In this document: positions 385 through 30,688 of the stretch, in pieces | How the letters are laid out: each line of letters opens with the position of its first letter | How positions within the stretch are numbered: the stretch's first letter is position 1 | Assembly: GCF_002843305.1 (NCBI RefSeq) | Contig: NZ_PGSG01000006.1 | Coordinates: 1-64,000, forward strand | DNA: 64,000 bases | Reading direction: 5' to 3' | From: Streptomyces barkulensis | GTDB taxonomy: Bacteria > Actinomycetota > Actinomycetes > Streptomycetales > Streptomycetaceae | Translations under genes and position numbers: made by a program | Notes under the pieces: model-generated | Databases searched by the model: none | Told to the model about the DNA's origin: nothing | What the model saw: only the letters and a program-made list of their open reading frames with translations

Positions 385-1265
385 TCGACCACCTGCGCGA
401 CAAGGGCCTCGGGGTCGATCCCGTCTGCCGGGTGCTGGATGTGTCGCCGTCGACGTACTTCGCGCGCAAGACGCGGCCGAAGTCGGCCCGACGCCTGCGC
501 GACGAAGAACTGATCCCGCTGGTCACAGCCGCGTGGGAGGACTCCGGGCGCACCTACGGCGCACGCCGCGTCACCCGCGCCCTGGTCCGCGCCGGACACA
601 CGGTGGCCCGCTGCACGGTCGAGCGGCTGATGGGCGAGCTCGGCATCGAGGGCGTCATCCGCGGGCAGCGCCGCCGCACCACGGTCCCCGAGCCGGCCGC
701 GCCGCGCCCGCCGGACCTGGTCAACCGCCGTTTCACCGCCGAGCGGCCCAACCAGCTGTGGCTGGCGGACCTGACCTACATCCGCACCTGGTCGGGGTGG
801 GTCTACGTCGCGTTCGTCCTGGACGCGTACTCACGCCGGATCGTGGGCTGGCAGGCCGCCACGCACCTGCGCACGGACCTGCCGCTGGACGCACTGGAGA
901 TGGCGCTGTGGCGGCAGAGGATCAAGAAGGACGCCGATCTCATCCATCACAGCGACCGCGGGTCGCAGTACGTATCCATTCGGTACACGGAACGTCTCGC
1001 CGAGGTCGGTGCCTCGGCGTCGGTCGGGTCCGTCGCGGACAGTTATGACAACGCGATGGCCGAGGCCCTCAACGGCACGTTCAAAGCCGAACTGATCGAA
1101 CATCAGGGGCCATGGCGGGACTTCGACCAGGTCGAGCGGGCCGTCTTCCAGTGGGTCGCGTGGTACAACGGTGAACGACTCCACTCCGCCCTGGGCTACG
1201 TGCCGCCCGACGAGTACGAGCAGACGTACTGGGCGTACCTGGAGGAAGTCCCGCAGACCGCTTGA
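381..1265 (+). CDS. IS3-family transposase OrfB (DDE integrase domain)
   Basis: This 294-aa frame is the catalytic half of the transposase. It has the HTH_21-type region first and then an RNase H-fold rve integrase core. The DDE triad is visible as Asp in LADLTYI, Asp in HHSDRGSQY, and Glu in the NAMAEALNGTFKAEL segment, the usual IS3 spacing. The GTG at 381 is only nominal: the -1 reading frame is open from the T-run of orfA (339 onward), so the natural product is probably an OrfAB fusion of about 400 aa. Both frames look intact, so the element may be active. Confidence 0.93.
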   Translation: MIDHLRDKGLGVDPVCRVLDVSPSTYFARKTRPKSARRLRDEELIPLVTAAWEDSGRTYGARRVTRALVRAGHTVARCTVERLMGELGIEGVIRGQRRRTTVPEPAAPRPPDLVNRRFTAERPNQLWLADLTYIRTWSGWVYVAFVLDAYSRRIVGWQAATHLRTDLPLDALEMALWRQRIKKDADLIHHSDRGSQYVSIRYTERLAEVGASASVGSVADSYDNAMAEALNGTFKAELIEHQGPWRDFDQVERAVFQWVAWYNGERLHSALGYVPPDEYEQTYWAYLEEVPQTA

Positions 1266-25405: not shown

Positions 25406-26260
25406 ATGCCACCGAGGACAGTGACGACCGCCCGGCAACGGCGACTTGGCACCGAGCTGCGCAAGATGAGGGAGGCGGCCGGGTACAACGCCCGCGAGGC
25501 CGCCGCGATCCTCGGCATCGACCACACGAAGATCAGCCAGGTCGAGACCGCCCGCTTCGGCGTCAGCGCGGACCGGGTGCGGTTCCTGGCCAGCGCCTAC
25601 GGCTGCGAAGACCAGGCATACGTTGAGTCGCTCGTCTCGATGGCCAAGGACCGCACCAAAGGCTGGTGGGAGAAGTACCGGGGCACCTTGTCGCCAGGAT
25701 TCCTGGACGTTGCGGAACTGGAGCACCATTCCGCATACCTGCACACGTACCAGATCGCGCACGTGCCAGGAATCGCCCAGACGGAGGAGTACGCGCAGGC
25801 GGTATTCGACTTCGGATCCCCATACAGGCTTTCGAAGGAACAGAAGGAAGCACGGGTCGAGCATCGAATCCAACGCGCAAATATCTTGGACCGAGAAGAA
25901 CCTTTCGAATACAAAGCCTTGGTGCACGAAGCCGCCCTGCACATGCGTTTCGGCGGCAGAGAGGTGACTCGTTCACAGCTTGACCACCTGGTGGACATGT
26001 CCGAGCACCCCAGGTTCTCGGTGCGCGTGATTCCGTTCGAAGCAGATGGCTTCGCCGGATCGGGGCAAGCCGTGCTGTACGCGGGCGGCCCGGTCGAGCA
26101 ACTCGACACCGTCCACTTGGACTCAACGCTCGGCCCGGTTTTCCTTGATGCGGACACCCATCTAAAGGCTTACCGAAGCATGTTCTCCAGGATGGAGAAA
26201 AGAGCCTTGAGCGCCAGGAAGTCACGAGACTTCATCAGAGAAGTCATCCAGCAGCTTTGA
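25406..26260 (+). CDS. WhiJ-like XRE regulator with DUF5753 domain
   Basis: This 284-aa protein has an N-terminal Cro/C1 helix-turn-helix (residues about 10-65: LGTELRKMREAAGYNAREAAAIL... DHTKISQVETA) followed by the DUF5753 domain (WWEKYRGTLSPGFLDVAELE, then ...LVHEAALHMRFG, and FSVRVIPFEADGF). It is the regulator part of a WhiJ/AbaA-type locus, next to a DUF397 gene and an HATPase gene. Such loci affect development and antibiotic production in Streptomyces. Codon use in the second half is less GC-rich than in neighbouring genes, which is common for these paralogue families. Confidence 0.92.
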   Translation: MPPRTVTTARQRRLGTELRKMREAAGYNAREAAAILGIDHTKISQVETARFGVSADRVRFLASAYGCEDQAYVESLVSMAKDRTKGWWEKYRGTLSPGFLDVAELEHHSAYLHTYQIAHVPGIAQTEEYAQAVFDFGSPYRLSKEQKEARVEHRIQRANILDREEPFEYKALVHEAALHMRFGGREVTRSQLDHLVDMSEHPRFSVRVIPFEADGFAGSGQAVLYAGGPVEQLDTVHLDSTLGPVFLDADTHLKAYRSMFSRMEKRALSARKSRDFIREVIQQL

Positions 26261-26271
26261 GAGGCGGAGGA

Positions 26272-26472
26272 ATGCTTGAGCAGGCGTGGCAGAAGTCTTC
26301 TTTCTGCGGCGGAGAAGGCGGGAACAACTGCGTGGAGCTTCGCTCCGACGCCGGAGCGGTCCGGCTCCGCGAGAGTGAGCGGCCCGGACAGACCATCGCC
26401 GCCACGCCCGCCGCGCTGCGGGCGCTGATACTCAGCGCCAAGGCGGGCGACCTAGACCACCTCACACACTGA
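26272..26472 (+). CDS. DUF397 protein
   Basis: This 66-aa DUF397 protein has the family pattern W.KSSFC..GNNCVEL near the N-terminus and a LRESERPGQTI middle. It follows the XRE gene by 11 bp. I took ATG 26272, with GGAGG immediately upstream; TTG 26257 would add five residues. DUF397 proteins are the small partners of WhiJ-like XRE regulators and probably bind or inhibit them. Confidence 0.88.
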   Translation: MLEQAWQKSSFCGGEGGNNCVELRSDAGAVRLRESERPGQTIAATPAALRALILSAKAGDLDHLTH

Positions 26473-26495: not shown

Positions 26496-26696
26496 ATGTC
26501 CGCACCCATCGAGTGGCACAAGGCGACCTTCTCCGAAGGCGAAGGCCCCAACTGCATCGAGATCGCCCGGGACGGCGATCGCGTCCTCATGCGCGAGAGC
26601 AGCAAGCCCGACGAGATCGTCGTCACCACGCCCGCCAAGCTCGACGCCTTCCTCAAGGGCATCAAGGCCGGCGAGTTCGACCACTTCGTCGACTGA
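26496..26696 (+). CDS. Second DUF397 protein
   Basis: This second 66-aa DUF397 protein starts at ATG 26496 after GGAGGGCGAG. It reads W.KATFSEGEGPNCIEIARDGDRVLMRES and ends in AGEFDHFVD. It lies 23 bp after the first, so both are probably translated from the XRE transcript. Its last 142 bp (26549-26690) recur without any difference at 29658-29799. Confidence 0.87.
   Translation: MSAPIEWHKATFSEGEGPNCIEIARDGDRVLMRESSKPDEIVVTTPAKLDAFLKGIKAGEFDHFVD
26549..26690 (+). repeat. 142-bp perfect direct repeat, left copy
   Basis: This segment of the DUF397 gene is identical to 29658-29799, in the same orientation, 3109 bp apart. The copies diverge abruptly at both ends. They bracket the deleted IS3 element and the nuclease unit. 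Confidence 0.95.
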
Positions 26697-26749
26697 GCCC
26701 CGAACCGGGCTGACGCGGGACCCGCCCGCGTCAGCCCCGCCCACACCCC

Positions 26750-26884
26750 TCACGGACAAGCGGCGGGCGGGACCTCACTGTGGCAAGACCCAGCGGGGAC
26801 CATCCGGATCCCGAGCCAGACATACTGGGACTCGGCGGTCACGGTGATGCCGGCGGCTTGCCGCTGGCTGCCCACCTCTGTCAC
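26750..26884 (-). pseudogene. Possible gene fragment next to the deleted IS
   Basis: A 44-codon minus-strand frame beginning at GTG 26884 reads like ordinary protein (ITVTAESQYVWLGIRM) and has a usable stop. It lies only 17 bp from the IS end at 26902 and may be the tail of a gene broken by that insertion, or a chance frame. I do not recognise it. Confidence 0.25.
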
Positions 26885-26901
26885 CCGACACCCCCTGTGA
26901 C

Positions 26902-27648
26902 TGAACCGTTCCGGGTTCGGTAGAGACCTCAGATGTTGGTTGTGAGCTGGGGTTTCGTGGTTGTCAGGTAGTGGTTGGCTTCGTATTCAGCGGGCGGGAT
27001 GTGCCCTATCTCACCGTGGAGCCGGGTGTGGTTGTACCAGTCGGTCCATTCGGCGGTGGCCAGCTCGACCTGGGCGAGGGATCGCCAGGGCCGCTGCGGC
27101 TTGATCACCTCGGTCTTGAAGAGGCCGATCGTGGACTCCATCAGCGCGTTGTCGTACGCGTCGCCGACCGATCCGATCGAGGCGGCGATGCCGGCCTTCT
27201 CCAAGTGTTCGGCCAGCGCGAAGGACGTATATTGCGATCCCGCGTCCGAGTGATGCACCAACTCGCCAGATCGGGGCGGGTGTTGGTCGCGGTCGCGTTG
27301 CCACAGCCCCATGTCCAGGGCGTCCAGGACGAGCCGGGTCTGCTTCGTGGTCGAGGCGGACCAGCCGACGATCCGGCGGGAGAAGGTGTCCACGACGAAG
27401 GCGACGTAGACGACGCCGGAGAACGTGGCGACATGGGTGAAGTCGACGACCCAGCAGCGTCTCGGTCGTGCCGATGCCGAGCTTCGCGGCGACCGCTTTC
27501 ATCGCGGCCCACTCGGTGTTGTAGTCGGGCCGCACCTCGGCGACCATCCGCACCGCACGACGGCGCAGCTCAAGCGGGTAGGGGGAAGGACGTGCCATGA
27601 CTCGGTCCTCTCAAACGATCGAGTCCCTACCGAACCCGGAACGGTTCA
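26902..27648 (-). mobile_element. Internally deleted IS3-family element
   Basis: The ends are inverted repeats of about 26 bp, differing at one position, beginning TGAACCGTTCCGGGTTCGGT. The 747-bp interior, read on the minus strand, begins as an IS3 orfA and continues as the C-terminal half of orfB, so about half of a normal element is missing. It cannot supply its own transposase but still has both ends. No clear target duplication is seen. The right end abuts the inverted-repeat unit that carries the nuclease gene. Confidence 0.88.
26929..27600 (-). pseudogene. Deleted IS3 transposase (orfA start fused to orfB end)
   Basis: From ATG 27598 the frame encodes the first 45 or so residues of an OrfA (ARPSPYPLELRRRAVRMVAE). 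At about 27459 the sequence jumps, in another frame, into the OrfB core (VVDFTHVATFSGVVYVAFVVD), which runs to the stop at 26929. The DDE residues (Asp in VVDFTH, Asp in HHSDAGSQY, Glu in NALMESTIGLFKTEV) survive, but the DNA-binding region and linker are lost. No full-length transposase is possible. Confidence 0.87.
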
Positions 27649-27674
27649 AACCTCGATCTTTCGTGAGGGTCCGC
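27649..27674 (+). repeat. Left terminal repeat of the nuclease unit
   Basis: This 26-bp copy differs at one base from 29430-29455 (direct) and from the complement of 29467-29492. It begins at the base after the deleted IS3 right end. Confidence 0.8.
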
Positions 27675-27811
27675 TATCTCGACACCCACTGGTTCATGAA
27701 CTACCGGGAAAGCGACTGAACCCGCCGCCCCCTCTCTGTCATCGTCGTGTGAGACGTCCCGGAACGTCCCACCCCAAGGCCCTTGTCAGCCCTACAGTTT
27801 AGTCTTCGATC

Positions 27812-29431
27812 ATGCGACCACCTCTCGAGAACATTCTCCGCAATGCCCTCGTGCAGAACCTGGAGCTGATCGAGCCAGGGCTCCGGCCGGTTCAGTTCGA
27901 GGAGTACCCGCTACCCAACGCACATGGCACCAGGGGCAGCATCGACATCTTGGCCCGTGATCGCCATCAGATGTGGGTGGTCATCGAGCTCAAGCGGTCC
28001 CGGTCCAGCGCGCGGCAAGCCCTGCACGAGGTCAACAAGTACACCGAACTTCTCTGCCGGGAGAAGAACCTTGCGCCTGATCGCATCCGTGCGGTGATCG
28101 TCGCCATGCCGGATGACTGGGAGGAGCTCCTGATCGCCGTCAGTCATGCCGCGCGCGACTGGAGTCATGATCTTCGCGGGTACCGACTGCTCTTGGACAG
28201 CGAAGGCACCCCCATCGGGACCGAGCGGGTGGAGCTCCTGCCCAGGGCGTTCGAACCCCGCATCACCCCCATCCACAACCTGTTCTTCTTCGCCACGGAA
28301 GAACAGCGTGAGCAGGGCTGGAGGATCATAAGTAAGGTCGCGGACGAGTTGGGAGCACTCGACCTGCTGGCAGCGGATTTGGACAGGGTAGCGGAGAAGC
28401 ACTACATCCCCGCTCCCTTCGGCCTGTACCTGGCGGTGGGCCGGGTGGACGAGGAGCTCGCCGCTGCGGATCTCCTGGGTGGTTACGACGGGCCGGAGCC
28501 GTTTGCCGACGAGCACCAGGCGGAGTACCTGGCCCTTTGTGAAATCTGTAACCGTCTTGCGCGCAGCAAGCTGCGTGGAATGAACATGAAGTCCGCACGG
28601 CCAGGGCTGTTGAAGAATCTCCGCGACGACCCCAACTGGGCTATCCAAGGCTTCCGAGGCACCGGTGCCTACGACGAAACAGCCGCCTTCGAACAGCAGG
28701 ACCTGTTTCGCTTCCTTACCGGGGACGAACGAGGAGACAGTCAGATCCTCTACACGGGTACCGCCAGCCCGCAGGTAGCCAACCGCTGGAAGGCTTTCCG
28801 GCAGGAGACTCGGCAGAGCCTGGCCGGCAACCACGAGTGGGAGTCACTCGTGGACGGCTGGCTCGACGAAGTGGGCCCGAAGGTCGGTGAGGGAGACGTC
28901 GGATTGCACGTCTACAACCCCTGTGACCTCCTACAAGCAATAATCCATGGGTGGCCGGACCGCATGGAGAATCTCCTGCCCATGGTCATGGGCGAAGCCG
29001 TACCCCGCCAAGGGCTACGGCACTCGGTACGTGGCGCCCTGTGCTGGAACGGCCGGGGCATGTCGTTGCCCGATGCGGTACGGCTCGTGTACCGAGACCC
29101 GCTGTTCCTGGTGAGCAATATGTACGCGGGAACAGTATGGGAACACGACCGAGAGCTCTTGGATCTCCTGGGGCTGCACTACGTGCTCCTGGAGAAGATC
29201 GGACCCGTTGAGTCCGAGGCGACGGTGGCCGACGAGCACCGCATCTGGATACATCAAGATCAAGGAGCTCGCGTCTACTCCTCGGACACGGACCCTCGCG
29301 GGTACGCGCAGGCGTACGCAAGCATTGCGGCTGATGGGGAGATCGTCTCGATCGGACAGTACCTCAACAGGCATTCCCACGAGGTGGAGCTGATCGTCCG
29401 GGAGCACCGCTCCTTCGTTCATGGCGTCTAA
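27812..29431 (+). CDS. PD-(D/E)XK nuclease-domain protein, NucS/DUF91-like N-terminus
   Basis: This 539-aa soluble protein has a restriction-endonuclease-like fold at residues about 25-120. Asp45 lies in RGSIDILARD, Glu59 and Lys61 in WVVIELKR, and Gln69 in ARQALHEVNKYTELL, giving D-X13-E-X-K plus a downstream Gln as in NucS/DUF91-type nucleases. The remaining 400 residues are not recognised; they contain no ATPase or helicase motif and look like a mixed alpha/beta target-recognition or sensing domain. It is the only gene between two terminal inverted repeats, and less GC-biased codons than flanking genes suggest transfer. It may be a solo defence nuclease. The start ATG 27812 has no strong ribosome site. 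Confidence 0.72.
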   Translation: MRPPLENILRNALVQNLELIEPGLRPVQFEEYPLPNAHGTRGSIDILARDRHQMWVVIELKRSRSSARQALHEVNKYTELLCREKNLAPDRIRAVIVAMPDDWEELLIAVSHAARDWSHDLRGYRLLLDSEGTPIGTERVELLPRAFEPRITPIHNLFFFATEEQREQGWRIISKVADELGALDLLAADLDRVAEKHYIPAPFGLYLAVGRVDEELAAADLLGGYDGPEPFADEHQAEYLALCEICNRLARSKLRGMNMKSARPGLLKNLRDDPNWAIQGFRGTGAYDETAAFEQQDLFRFLTGDERGDSQILYTGTASPQVANRWKAFRQETRQSLAGNHEWESLVDGWLDEVGPKVGEGDVGLHVYNPCDLLQAIIHGWPDRMENLLPMVMGEAVPRQGLRHSVRGALCWNGRGMSLPDAVRLVYRDPLFLVSNMYAGTVWEHDRELLDLLGLHYVLLEKIGPVESEATVADEHRIWIHQDQGARVYSSDTDPRGYAQAYASIAADGEIVSIGQYLNRHSHEVELIVREHRSFVHGV

Positions 29432-29493
29432 CCTCGATATTTCGTGAGGGTCCGCCGACGGAGTCGGCGGACCCTCACGAAATATCGAGGTTA
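29429..29493. repeat. Perfect palindrome with 31-bp arms
   Basis: The 31-bp arms are exact complements around a 3-nt loop (GGA). The left arm begins in the nuclease stop codon. Each arm contains the 26-bp terminal repeat of the unit. It will form a very stable hairpin in RNA or single-stranded DNA and may act as terminator, as abutted transposon ends, or both. Confidence 0.9.
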
Positions 29494-29580
29494 AGAGACC
29501 GTTGTACTCCAACATTGCGTCGTGGGCCTGTGACGCAACGCCCGCGATCCCCGATGGCCCCTCGCACTCCTTGGTCTCGG

Positions 29581-29805
29581 ATGATCACAAACCGGACGCA
29601 ACACGACTACGCCGAGGCCCTGATCGAGTGGTACGCCGCATCCTGCGGCGGCGGCAACAACTGCATCGAGATCGCCCGGGACGGCGATCGCGTCCTCATG
29701 CGCGAGAGCAGCAAGCCCGACGAGATCGTCGTCACCACGCCCGCCAAGCTCGACGCCTTCCTCAAGGGCATCAAGGCCGGCGAGTTCGACCACTTCGTCA
29801 ACTGA
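29581..29805 (+). CDS. Chimeric DUF397 copy
   Basis: The last 48 codons are a duplicate of the DUF397 gene at 26496 with one change near the end (Asp to Asn). The first 26 codons (from ATG 29581, MITNRTQHDYAEALIEWYAA) are unrelated to that copy, although EWYAASCGGGNNCIEIA still resembles a DUF397 N-terminal motif. The 142-bp exact identity points to recent duplication or gene conversion between two DUF397 genes. Whether the chimera is expressed is uncertain, since the ribosome site is weak and no XRE gene precedes it directly. Confidence 0.5.
   Translation: MITNRTQHDYAEALIEWYAASCGGGNNCIEIARDGDRVLMRESSKPDEIVVTTPAKLDAFLKGIKAGEFDHFVN
29658..29799 (+). repeat. 142-bp perfect direct repeat, right copy
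   Basis: Identical to 26549-26690. After the shared segment the copies differ by one base and then share ACTGA, the stop. Confidence 0.95.
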
Positions 29806-29877
29806 TCGCCGCGCGGGGCTCCGGGAGGAGCCCCGCCGCTTCCCCGTCCCGCCCCGGCGGACCGGCCCACCGGGCCG

Positions 29878-30528
29878 TCAGCGCGCCGGGCCCTCCACCA
29901 CGGGCTTCAGCACCTGCGACGCCTCCCGGTCCGATATCTGCGCGTACACCTTGTCCGGTGTTCCCGAACCGCCCTGCCGGTAGCCGATCTTCGACGGGCA
30001 CTGCGGTTGCGGGGTCCTCGTGATGGTGTCCACGACACGTCCGGTGCGCAGCTCGTAGACGGTGTAGGTGAACGTCTGGGAGTACATCGGGTAGCTCTCC
30101 CGCGGATCCAGCCGGCCGGACTCCGCGTACTCGCAGTCGCGCTCCCGCTCCTCGCCCCGTTCCCCCTTGCCGCAGGCCAGCAGTTCGATCTCCGAGACCG
30201 GGGTGGTCTTCGACAGGTCCGGCAACCCGTCGAAACTCACGTGCTCCTGCAGCACCGTGCCGGTCATCACGTCCTTGTCGGTCCGGTATCCGGAGCGGAA
30301 GACGGCCGTGCGATGTGGTCCGTCACCCGAGTACCTCGCCGCCCCGGGGTGCCCGTCCCCGATCTCCGAGCACAGTTCGGAGAGCTGGACCACGGTCCTG
30401 ATCCTCTCGGTCCCCGGCTCCGGGGAGGAGGCGTCGGTCTTCCCTCCGGAGTCCCCCGAGCAGGCGGCCAGTGCGGCCAGCAGCCCGCAGGCGGCGAGTG
30501 GAGCGGTTACGCGTCGTGCCATCGGCAT
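29878..30528 (-). CDS. Secreted lipoprotein
   Basis: This 216-aa lipoprotein starts at ATG 30528, four bases after GGAGG. The signal peptide ends in a lipobox LAAC near residue 20, followed by SGDSGGKTDASS. Six or more Cys in the mature domain (ELCSEIG, LLACGKG, DCEYAES, PQCPSK) suggest disulfides. It sits outside the membrane. I do not recognise a family; its role is unknown. Confidence 0.75.
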   Translation of the reverse strand: MPMARRVTAPLAACGLLAALAACSGDSGGKTDASSPEPGTERIRTVVQLSELCSEIGDGHPGAARYSGDGPHRTAVFRSGYRTDKDVMTGTVLQEHVSFDGLPDLSKTTPVSEIELLACGKGERGEERERDCEYAESGRLDPRESYPMYSQTFTYTVYELRTGRVVDTITRTPQPQCPSKIGYRQGGSGTPDKVYAQISDREASQVLKPVVEGPAR

Positions 30529-30688
30529 GAGACCTCCCAGTCCCCGTCGCGCCCACGGCACGCGCCCGTGAGCCCCCGTCAGGGGGGCCGCCCTGCCGTG
30601 GGCGGATTCCGCGGCCAACCTGTCCGCACGCGAGCGTAGCGAACGCCCCACAGGCAGATGAGTGATCCCAAATCCCTTATCAGGGAAG

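What the first reader, a model, noticed from the sequence alone, without database searches (positions are those of the whole stretch)
27649..29492. Transposase-less inverted-repeat unit that carries only a PD-(D/E)XK nuclease
The 26-bp ends at 27649 and 29467 are inverted repeats with one difference, and the only ORF between them encodes a 539-aa protein with a D45-X13-E59-X-K61 nuclease core. A nuclease without a methylase or helicase, packaged between repeats beside other mobile DNA, suggests either a mobile solo defence gene or a selfish nuclease unit.
Basis: partly seen in the sequence, partly recalled or inferred. Interest (0 to 1): 0.75.

Follow-up and report, generated by a model that had tools for sequence, protein, structure and literature searches.

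The report
Solo nuclease gene amid transposon scars
The inverted repeats around this Streptomyces-type gene are leftover ends of an ordinary transposon that happen to flank it, while the gene itself is a horizontally spread, probably anti-phage DNA-cutting enzyme that turns up elsewhere without those repeats and often near known defence genes.

Summary
The repeats and the nuclease are real; the "unit" is not supported. The 26-bp ends are IS1380-family transposon ends: the same genome holds IS1380 copies with a 475-aa transposase whose right end matches. The left end (27651-27674) is a 24-nt scar running into the tail of a SUKH-like gene. The right "end" is half of a 59-bp IS1380-derived palindrome (29432-29490), a kind also found without a nuclease in another genome of the genus. 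No target duplication flanks the unit. None of 18 other loci with the nuclease, a relative or a fragment has the repeat. Close full-length copies (88-94% identical) share with the window only 28-44 nt upstream plus the gene, ending at the stop codon. One collinear relative lacks the whole segment 26742-30687. The nuclease (539 aa; NucS-like PD-(D/E)XK domain at residues 6-98, then about 440 residues unexplained) is patchy, under purifying selection, and has defence-type genes within 5 kb in 6 of 10 other neighbourhoods (neighbours picked by eye, no control set): type I restriction, GmrSD-like, DrmD-like, Septu-like, pPIWI-RE, PDC-M09. Best reading: a horizontally moving solo nuclease, probably anti-phage, in a transposon graveyard; function untested. 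New member of a known kind.

The parts
26742..30687. Accessory segment absent from the collinear relative G214, holding the IS scars, the nuclease, a third DUF397 gene and an ORF that looks like a lipoprotein (label from recall; no Pfam match)
   Evidence: G214 matches the window up to 26741 (apart from an extra DUF397 copy) and again from 30688, with 26 bases between the matched stretches
26902..27648 (-). IS3-family remnant, 747 bp, with its own 26-bp inverted ends and a cut-down 154-aa transposase C-terminus
   Evidence: I2; rve_3 5.1e-16; transpos_IS3 4.2e-42, 144.7 bits, below the cut-off of 160
27651..27674 (+).
   Evidence: the sequence beyond it is not IS1380
27671..27719 (+). 3' tail of a SUKH-like gene, to its stop codon, fused to the inner side of the IS1380 scar (the first four bases are common to both)
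   Evidence: 27665-27719 matches three Streptomyces plasmids at 94.5, 89.1 and 86.5%; two of them compared in frame; plasmid protein has a weak SUKH_6 match, 27.4 bits against a cut-off of 27
27768..27811 (+). Upstream stretch conserved with the nuclease in other genomes (probable promoter, inferred)
   Evidence: shared DNA starts at 27768-27784 in the seven copies with their 5' end; -40..-1, window copy z 1.4 to 5.1 against shuffles
27812..29431 (+). Solo nuclease gene, 539 aa: NucS-like PD-(D/E)XK domain at residues 6-98, then about 440 residues without a recognised domain
   Evidence: Pfam NucS_C 2.4e-10; catalytic residues invariant; dN/dS 0.10-0.14 against six close copies
29432..29490 (.).
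   Evidence: a second such palindrome without a nuclease in G020
29491..29622 (+). Decayed 3' end of a transposase gene (ISAs1-like; label from recall), beginning TTAA
   Evidence: 93.9% over 132 nt to G005; a weaker match there (75.8% over 99 nt) overlaps the 3' end of a 406-aa ORF that looks like a transposase
29623..29805 (+). Third DUF397 gene copy; 29647-29820 is 94% identical to 26538-26711
   Evidence: D1; DUF397 1.9e-9

Best explanation
The locus is a patchwork. A horizontally spread single-gene nuclease has come to lie in an IS-riddled accessory segment between a DUF397 gene and an HxlR-like regulator gene (label from recall). The inverted ends around it are two separate remains of an IS1380-family transposon still resident in the genome: a 24-nt truncated end on the left, and on the right a 59-bp palindromic derivative sitting on the junction between the nuclease stop codon and a different IS remnant. 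They may record rearrangements between IS1380 copies that helped shape the segment, but they do not define a travelling unit. The protein most likely acts as a solo anti-phage (or anti-foreign-DNA) enzyme: the C-terminal ~440 residues sense or hold the target, and the N-terminal NucS-like PD-(D/E)XK domain cuts DNA. Shown: the scars, the absence of the repeats at the other loci examined, absence of the segment from one collinear relative, the conserved catalytic core, purifying selection, defence-type neighbours in several other genomes. Inferred: nuclease activity, the defence role, what the C-terminal part does, the order of events.
For: Repeats are IS1380 ends: 22-nt core at C41, C66, C67 and C108 of the same genome, each beside an identical 475-aa transposase that matches NCBIfam transpos_IS1380 at 2.8e-103, 345.8 bits against a cut-off of 180. 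Left scar runs into a SUKH-like gene tail. Palindrome without a nuclease in G020. Repeat absent at 18 of 18 other loci, at 28 of 28 in a second, overlapping set, and, as a 28-nt pattern at up to 2 mismatches, from the whole genomes of the five other nuclease- or fragment-bearing members (G113, G124, G146, G185, G269 all 0). Shared DNA ends at the stop codon. G214 lacks the segment. NucS_C in 10 of 10 members; E6, R10, E31, D45, E59, K61, K76, Y77 invariant in 9 of 9; dN/dS 0.10-0.14. Defence-type neighbours (PADLOC, within 5 kb) in 6 of 10 neighbourhoods: type I restriction genes, PDC-S68 (L021, L025); HEC-05/GmrSD-like (L022); DrmD-like helicase 1.6e-163 (L023); PDC-M09A/B and a type I methylase (Nocardia L029-L031); pPIWI-RE pair (L082); Septu-like PtuA/PDC-M01A with PDC-M01B (L125). 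Mobility genes: relaxase and integrase in G269, integrase in G375.
Against: No activity or phage data exist here. The AlphaFold2 model is poor (mean pLDDT 41), so the C-terminal part is uninterpreted. In 4 of 10 neighbourhoods no clear defence neighbour was seen, neighbours were chosen by eye and not all scanned, and no matched control set was run, so the neighbourhood evidence is suggestive only. PADLOC gave no full-length match for the family. Only one collinear relative (G214) shows the segment missing; the other three loci fetched match only the right side or other genes, so gain against loss is inferred. IS1380-type ends on both sides leave open some part of IS1380 in bringing the gene here.
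Confidence: 0.65

Rival explanations
1. Mobile insertion cassette: the unit 27651-29490 is a non-autonomous IS1380 derivative that carries the nuclease and is moved in trans by the resident IS1380 transposase, formed recently and only in this lineage.
For: Both outer ends are of the IS1380 right-end type and face correctly; an uninterrupted 475-aa transposase is encoded in the same genome; cassettes moved in trans are known (PMC3913671, passages read).
Against: No target duplication: CAAA to the left, TTAA to the right; G005 has the TTAAG of the right-hand flank without any IS1380 end. The ends differ at one position, and the left one continues into a SUKH-like gene tail, not IS1380 subterminal sequence. 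The ends are absent at 18 of 18 other loci.
Confidence: 0.1
2. Selfish or homing nuclease: the gene spreads by cutting empty sites, which would explain why the block shared with the window is just the gene, ending at the stop codon.
For: Shared block is the gene plus 28-44 nt, with unrelated DNA on both sides in most pairs; some copies are broken (frameshift in L026; 5' part missing in L027 and L028).
Against: No shared target sequence was seen by eye in the flanks laid side by side; the sites differ, and several lie near defence or mobility genes.
Confidence: 0.08
3. A second DNA-repair enzyme: a NucS-like mismatch or damage endonuclease acting for the host, not a defence protein.
For: The nuclease domain is NucS-like; NucS has been studied as the mismatch-repair endonuclease of Streptomyces (PMC11109965, passages read); one copy lies near genes that look like sbcC and sbcD (label from recall, L028).
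Against: The genome has a separate NucS_C gene at C51 that scores 141 bits; the gene is patchy (full length in 4 of 295 genomes of the genus, and 4 of 101 of the family, own genome included in both); scores are far below the NucS equivalog cut-offs (47.1 against 216 bits).
Confidence: 0.12

Closest known systems
NucS/EndoMS endonuclease (PF01939)
   Same: PD-(D/E)XK core of the NucS_C kind with conserved D, E and K; the only PDB matches below E 0.01 are EndoMS 5gke (1.6e-7) and NucS 2vld (4.5e-6), over the nuclease domain
   Different: The nuclease domain is N-terminal (residues 6-98) with about 440 unexplained residues after it; far below the NCBIfam cut-offs; an accessory gene beside a separate NucS gene
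'Endonuclease NucS (domain-containing) protein' of plasmid annotation (Rhizobium, Acetobacter, Pseudoalteromonas)
   Same: Same length class (H2, H6 and H7: about 520-555 aa) and the same N-terminal domain; the Acetobacter copy is next to toxin-antitoxin genes on a mobilizable plasmid, the Pseudoalteromonas copy next to transposases
   Different: Only 20-23% identical to the window protein over the alignment
PDC-S11 candidate single-gene defence proteins (PADLOC)
   Same: Matches in 9 of 9 family members, best 2e-8
   Different: The window protein itself matches at 0.0017 at best, over residues 10-66; no full-length match seen
Mobile insertion cassettes (MIC231 and mic elements)
   Same: Inverted repeats around a passenger gene without transposase; a matching transposase elsewhere in the genome
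   Different: No target duplication, one end a truncated scar, the other part of a separate palindrome, and the ends do not accompany the gene at the other loci examined
Shedu (SduA)
   Same: Single-protein PD-(D/E)XK defence nuclease as a way of working (recalled)
   Different: SduA_C matched 3 of 10 members, best 0.016; not a member on this evidence

Membership tests
Mobile insertion cassette (mic) | Two inverted repeats bracket a passenger gene with no transposase between them | tested here: met
Mobile insertion cassette (mic) | Target site duplication at the two outer borders (usual, per PMC3913671) | tested here: not met
   CAAA against TTAA at the borders
Mobile insertion cassette (mic) | Ends match an IS whose transposase could act in trans | tested here: met
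   Resident IS1380-family element, 475-aa transposase; action in trans not tested
Mobile insertion cassette (mic) | The cassette is found as one piece at other sites | tested here: not met
   Ends absent at 18 of 18 other loci and 28 of 28 in an overlapping set
IS1380 family (the source of the ends) | IS1380-type transposase next to the same terminal repeat | tested here: met
   345.8 bits against a cut-off of 180; terminal repeat at the four copies
NucS/EndoMS | NucS C-terminal PD-(D/E)XK domain | tested here: met
   PF01939 2.4e-10, 40.9 bits against a cut-off of 24
NucS/EndoMS | Whole-protein NucS equivalog score | tested here: not met
   47.1 against 216 and 24.1 against 252 bits
NucS/EndoMS | N-terminal DNA-binding domain before the nuclease domain | tested here: not met
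   The nuclease domain starts at residue 6; the normal order is described in PMC11109965 (passage read)
Known PADLOC defence family | Full-length match to a PADLOC model | tested here: not met
   Best two matches cover 63 of 308 and 54 of 347 profile positions
Shedu (SduA) | SduA C-terminal nuclease domain | tested here: inconclusive
   3 of 10 members, best E 0.016
Anti-phage defence gene | Protects against phage | not testable with these tools
   Only neighbourhood evidence: 6 of 10 neighbourhoods, no control set

The most novel reading that the evidence does not exclude
An undescribed single-protein defence family: an N-terminal NucS-like nuclease fused to a large new sensor domain, spread from actinobacteria to proteobacteria, which jumps between defence loci as a bare one-gene cassette whose 3' border lies exactly at the stop codon, by a transfer mechanism not yet known.
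Probability: 0.3. Interest if true: 0.55.

Novelty: new member of a known kind. Interest (0 to 1): 0.33.

Why it matters
It removes a false lead (a transposase-less nuclease transposon) and shows how IS scars can mimic a mobile unit. It leaves a better-defined target: a conserved, horizontally moving NucS-like nuclease with a large unexplained C-terminal part, near restriction, DrmD-like, Septu-like, pPIWI-RE and candidate defence genes in other genomes, which could be tested directly for phage protection.

Tried and rejected
Rejected: the 27649-29492 repeat pair as borders of a travelling unit. Rejected: the palindrome as only a terminator; its sequence is that of two IS1380 ends, though it may also end transcription (not tested). 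Rejected: membership in NucS or a PADLOC family on the tests made; Shedu stays inconclusive and unlikely.

Led nowhere: structure prediction of the full protein (mean pLDDT 41), so no fold search was run; viral contigs (66 stretches matched, none a relative) and phages (none); solved structures for the C-terminal part (below E 0.01 only the nuclease domain matched). Literature: (listings; some showed 12 of 250 and 6 of 1,588 papers) named no paper on this family; passages read in PMC11109965, PMC12715929 (irrelevant) and PMC3913671; listings only. The right-flank search in 61 genomes gave 129 nt at 94% in G005 and otherwise short or DUF397 matches; the G214 site came, and of the four loci then fetched only G214 is collinear on both sides.

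Limits of the counts: neighbour proteins were picked by eye from a home-made gene caller. To Pfam went 10 and 10 (of which one is the SUKH-like plasmid gene and one a neighbour of the Nonomuraea hit H1); to PADLOC 10 each. No matched control neighbourhoods were scanned. The 10 neighbourhoods, grouped by shared flanks, are: G124 with L022 and L027; L021 with L025; L023 with L026 and G269; L024; L028; the four Nocardia loci; G185:C15 with G334; G185:C8; G375; G362. Six have a defence-type neighbour; L024, L028, G185:C15/G334 and G375 have none counted. At L028 the gene that looks like sbcC matches mad3 and LmuB profiles (2.5e-20, 2.6e-16); I did not count it, as it looks like a housekeeping gene. 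G334 has a NACHT protein by Pfam (5.2e-11) but no PADLOC match. H1 (one neighbour scanned, no match) and H2-H9 are left out. My first count, before and before merging groups, was 5 of 12. The shuffles keep base composition only.

Full report
Observation. The window is contig C5:1-64000 of an unnamed 6.53-Mb genome in 116 contigs. I take its genus to be Streptomyces by inference, since named close copies of the gene are mostly Streptomyces. The inverted repeat is as described, 27649-27674 against 29467-29492 with one difference. The right arm is half of a perfect palindrome, 29429-29493, which folds strongly as single-stranded DNA (z -15.1 against shuffles) and starts at the stop codon of the nuclease gene. 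The 539-aa ORF and its D45, E59 and K61 are real.

What the repeats are. The 22-nt core occurs at zero mismatches at four other places in this genome, C41, C66, C67 and C108, and at C52 with two mismatches (the pattern read backwards gives 0). At the four it is the end of an IS with an identical 475-aa transposase, an IS1380-family transposase by NCBIfam (2.8e-103). The IS has an imperfect left end (CCTCGCGCTTTCATGAAG...) and a right end that continues into a hairpin. All four lie at contig ends, so the true copy number is uncertain. A 28-nt end pattern with up to 2 mismatches is found in 42 of 295 genomes of the genus, own included.

Left end. Positions 27651-27674 equal the IS1380 right end over 24 nt, then depart from it. 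The stretch 27665-27719 matches three Streptomyces plasmids at 94.5, 89.1 and 86.5%; in the two I compared it is the end of an open frame, closing with the same stop codon. The plasmid protein has a weak SUKH_6 match (5.3e-6, 27.4 bits against a cut-off of 27). So this is a truncated IS end fused to a foreign gene tail, not the intact border of a unit. Two bases to its left ends an IS3-family remnant with its own inverted ends (26902-27648).

Right end. Positions 29432-29490 are a palindrome of two IS1380-type right ends. A second one of this kind, without a nuclease, is at G020 C85:770-828; these are the only 2 of 291 genomes with a match at up to 3 mismatches. On the left it abuts CTAA, the end of the nuclease gene (CTAA also in G124, L022 and L027). 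On the right it abuts TTAAG, which G005 has without any IS1380 end; that right-hand stretch, 29491-29622, is a decayed end of another transposase gene. In the fetched loci the four bases outside such ends are TTAA, CTAG, TTAG, CTGA, TTGG or CTAA in 26 of 33 matches, repeats of the same place included. The palindrome therefore lies on a junction between two different DNAs, and the unit has no target duplication.

Do the ends travel with the gene? Nine close copies or fragments were found: L015 (G124) and L021-L028, in Streptomyces, Lentzea and Actinokineospora. In none of the 18 loci other than our own from these two calls (the nine, plus more distant relatives and fragments) is the core present at up to 4 mismatches; nor in 28 loci of a second, overlapping scan. 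The DNA shared with the window starts at 27768-27784 in the seven copies that keep their 5' end, and stops at 29430 or 29431, at the stop codon, in all nine. Of 36 pairs among nine copies, the 60 nt after the stop are clearly alike in two, G124-L027 and L021-L025, which share flanks; three more pairs reach z 2.1 to 2.6. The 40 nt before the start are alike in most of 15 pairs (z 1.4 to 7.2); further up, -120 to -61, one pair is clearly alike and two reach z 2.1 to 2.5. Some pairs other than the window share more (G124 with L023 to about -118; L023 with L026 beyond the stop). At the synonymous divergence seen (0.27-0.58 for the window copy) shared flanks should in most cases still be recognisable, so the gene seems to have moved with little besides itself.

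Empty site. The nearest relative found, G214, matches the window on both sides at 88.8-94.3% identity, with one DUF397 gene followed directly by the HxlR-like gene; 26742-30687 of the window is missing there. Whether it was gained here or lost there is inferred: the IS remnants and the scattered distribution of the nuclease favour gain.

The nuclease. Pfam sees NucS_C at residues 6-98 (2.4e-10) and nothing after it in the window protein; NucS_C is found in 10 of 10 members, with weaker matches to other nuclease families in some (PDDEXK_1 in one at 8.5e-4, SduA_C in three at 0.016 or worse). E6, R10, E31, D45, E59, K61, K76, Y77 and R93 are invariant in 9 members from actinobacteria and proteobacteria. 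dN/dS is 0.10-0.14 for the window copy against six close copies, and 0.006-0.06 in residues 1-120; over all 21 pairs it is 0.10-0.19 except for one nearly identical pair at 0.48. So it is, or was until recently, a working protein. The genome also has a NucS_C gene at C51 (141 bits, 225-aa frame), taken to be the ordinary NucS. The family is patchy: 6 of 295 genomes of the genus, own included, of which 4 are full length and 2 fragments; 10 of 101 genomes of the family at 1e-8, of which 4 are full length and 6 match only positions 5-90, probably the ordinary NucS. Plasmids: 9 records, one at 99% coverage and 36.7% identity, and that record is an 11.85-Mb entry filed as a plasmid. Phages: none. 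Some copies are broken: a frameshift in L026, 5' part missing in L027 and L028.

Neighbourhoods. Grouped by shared flanks there are 10 neighbourhoods outside the window. In 6 a neighbour within 5 kb matches a PADLOC defence model: type I restriction genes and, at L025, PDC-S68 (L021, L025); a GmrSD_N/Schlafen protein matching HEC-05 at 1.8e-16 (L022); a DrmD-like helicase, 1.6e-163 (L023); PDC-M09A and B and a type I methylase (Nocardia L029-L031); pPIWI-RE genes beside a 27%-identical relative (G185:C8, L082); Septu-like PtuA/PDC-M01A with PDC-M01B (G362, L125). The other 4 gave none that I count (see Tried and rejected). The L023 group also holds, in G269, a relaxase and an integrase, and G375 an integrase. 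G185:C15 and G334 share chromosomal genes near the nuclease (79.6-82.0% over 0.6-1.7 kb), so one site has been used in two genera. Neighbours were chosen by eye and no control set was run, so this is suggestive, not a test. Recounting moved the figure from 5 of 12 to 6 of 10; I left the odds as they were, because the missing control weighs more.

How it most likely works. Inferred: the long C-terminal part recognises foreign or altered DNA, or a phage-made signal, and the N-terminal domain cuts DNA, as single-protein nuclease defences do. The structure prediction was too poor to say more.

Comparison. It works most like a solo PD-(D/E)XK defence nuclease (Shedu in manner, not in membership). 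It is not a NucS: it is far below the equivalog cut-offs and has the nuclease domain at the other end. The unit does not pass as a mobile insertion cassette: PMC3913671 (passages read) describes inverted repeats with no transposase gene nearby and usually a target duplication; the first is met between the repeats, the second is not, and the ends do not travel. On novelty, the listings named no paper on this family; PADLOC 2.0.0 gives only partial matches to the window protein, and plasmid annotation already names such proteins 'endonuclease NucS' or 'endonuclease NucS domain-containing protein'. I file it as a new member of a known kind.

Noticed in passing
26257-26472, 26496-26696 and 29623-29805: Three DUF397 genes where the relative G214 has one; two of them are 94% identical over 174 nt and flank the nuclease and IS scars as direct repeats, which could have served for integration by homologous recombination.
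   Followed up: partly
L078 770-828 (G020): A second 59-bp IS1380-derived palindrome, unrelated to any nuclease, flanked by CTGA and CTTA; probably a tiny non-autonomous derivative or a product of aberrant transposition.
   Followed up: partly
L082 7143-8669 (G185:C8); same gene at L020 1345-2874: A distant relative of the nuclease (27% identical) lies convergent to and directly beside a pPIWI-RE gene pair; it might be the nuclease of that island.
   Followed up: partly
L027 5958-6001: In Streptomyces sp. NRRL S-37 the nuclease gene is cut off at an end matching the IS3-family ends that also abut the window's IS1380 scar (27621-27651).
   Followed up: no
27720-27766: A short stretch just upstream of the nuclease recurs at 86-91% on three Streptomyces plasmids (H13-H15), one within 2 kb of an IS3 transposase; possibly another IS end.
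   Followed up: no
L079 9697-10912 against L023 4598-5814: A 46%-identical nuclease in G269 and the 93%-identical one in S. roseolilacinus share a 94%-identical flank over 1.2 kb covering part of a relaxase gene, as if alternative nuclease genes occupy the same mobile element slot.
   Followed up: partly
window 399-415 (contig C5 start): A 17-nt match recurs at the same offset in contigs C2, C3 and C4, and at 876-892 in C6-C9, so the window probably begins in a repeat at which the assembly breaks.
   Followed up: no
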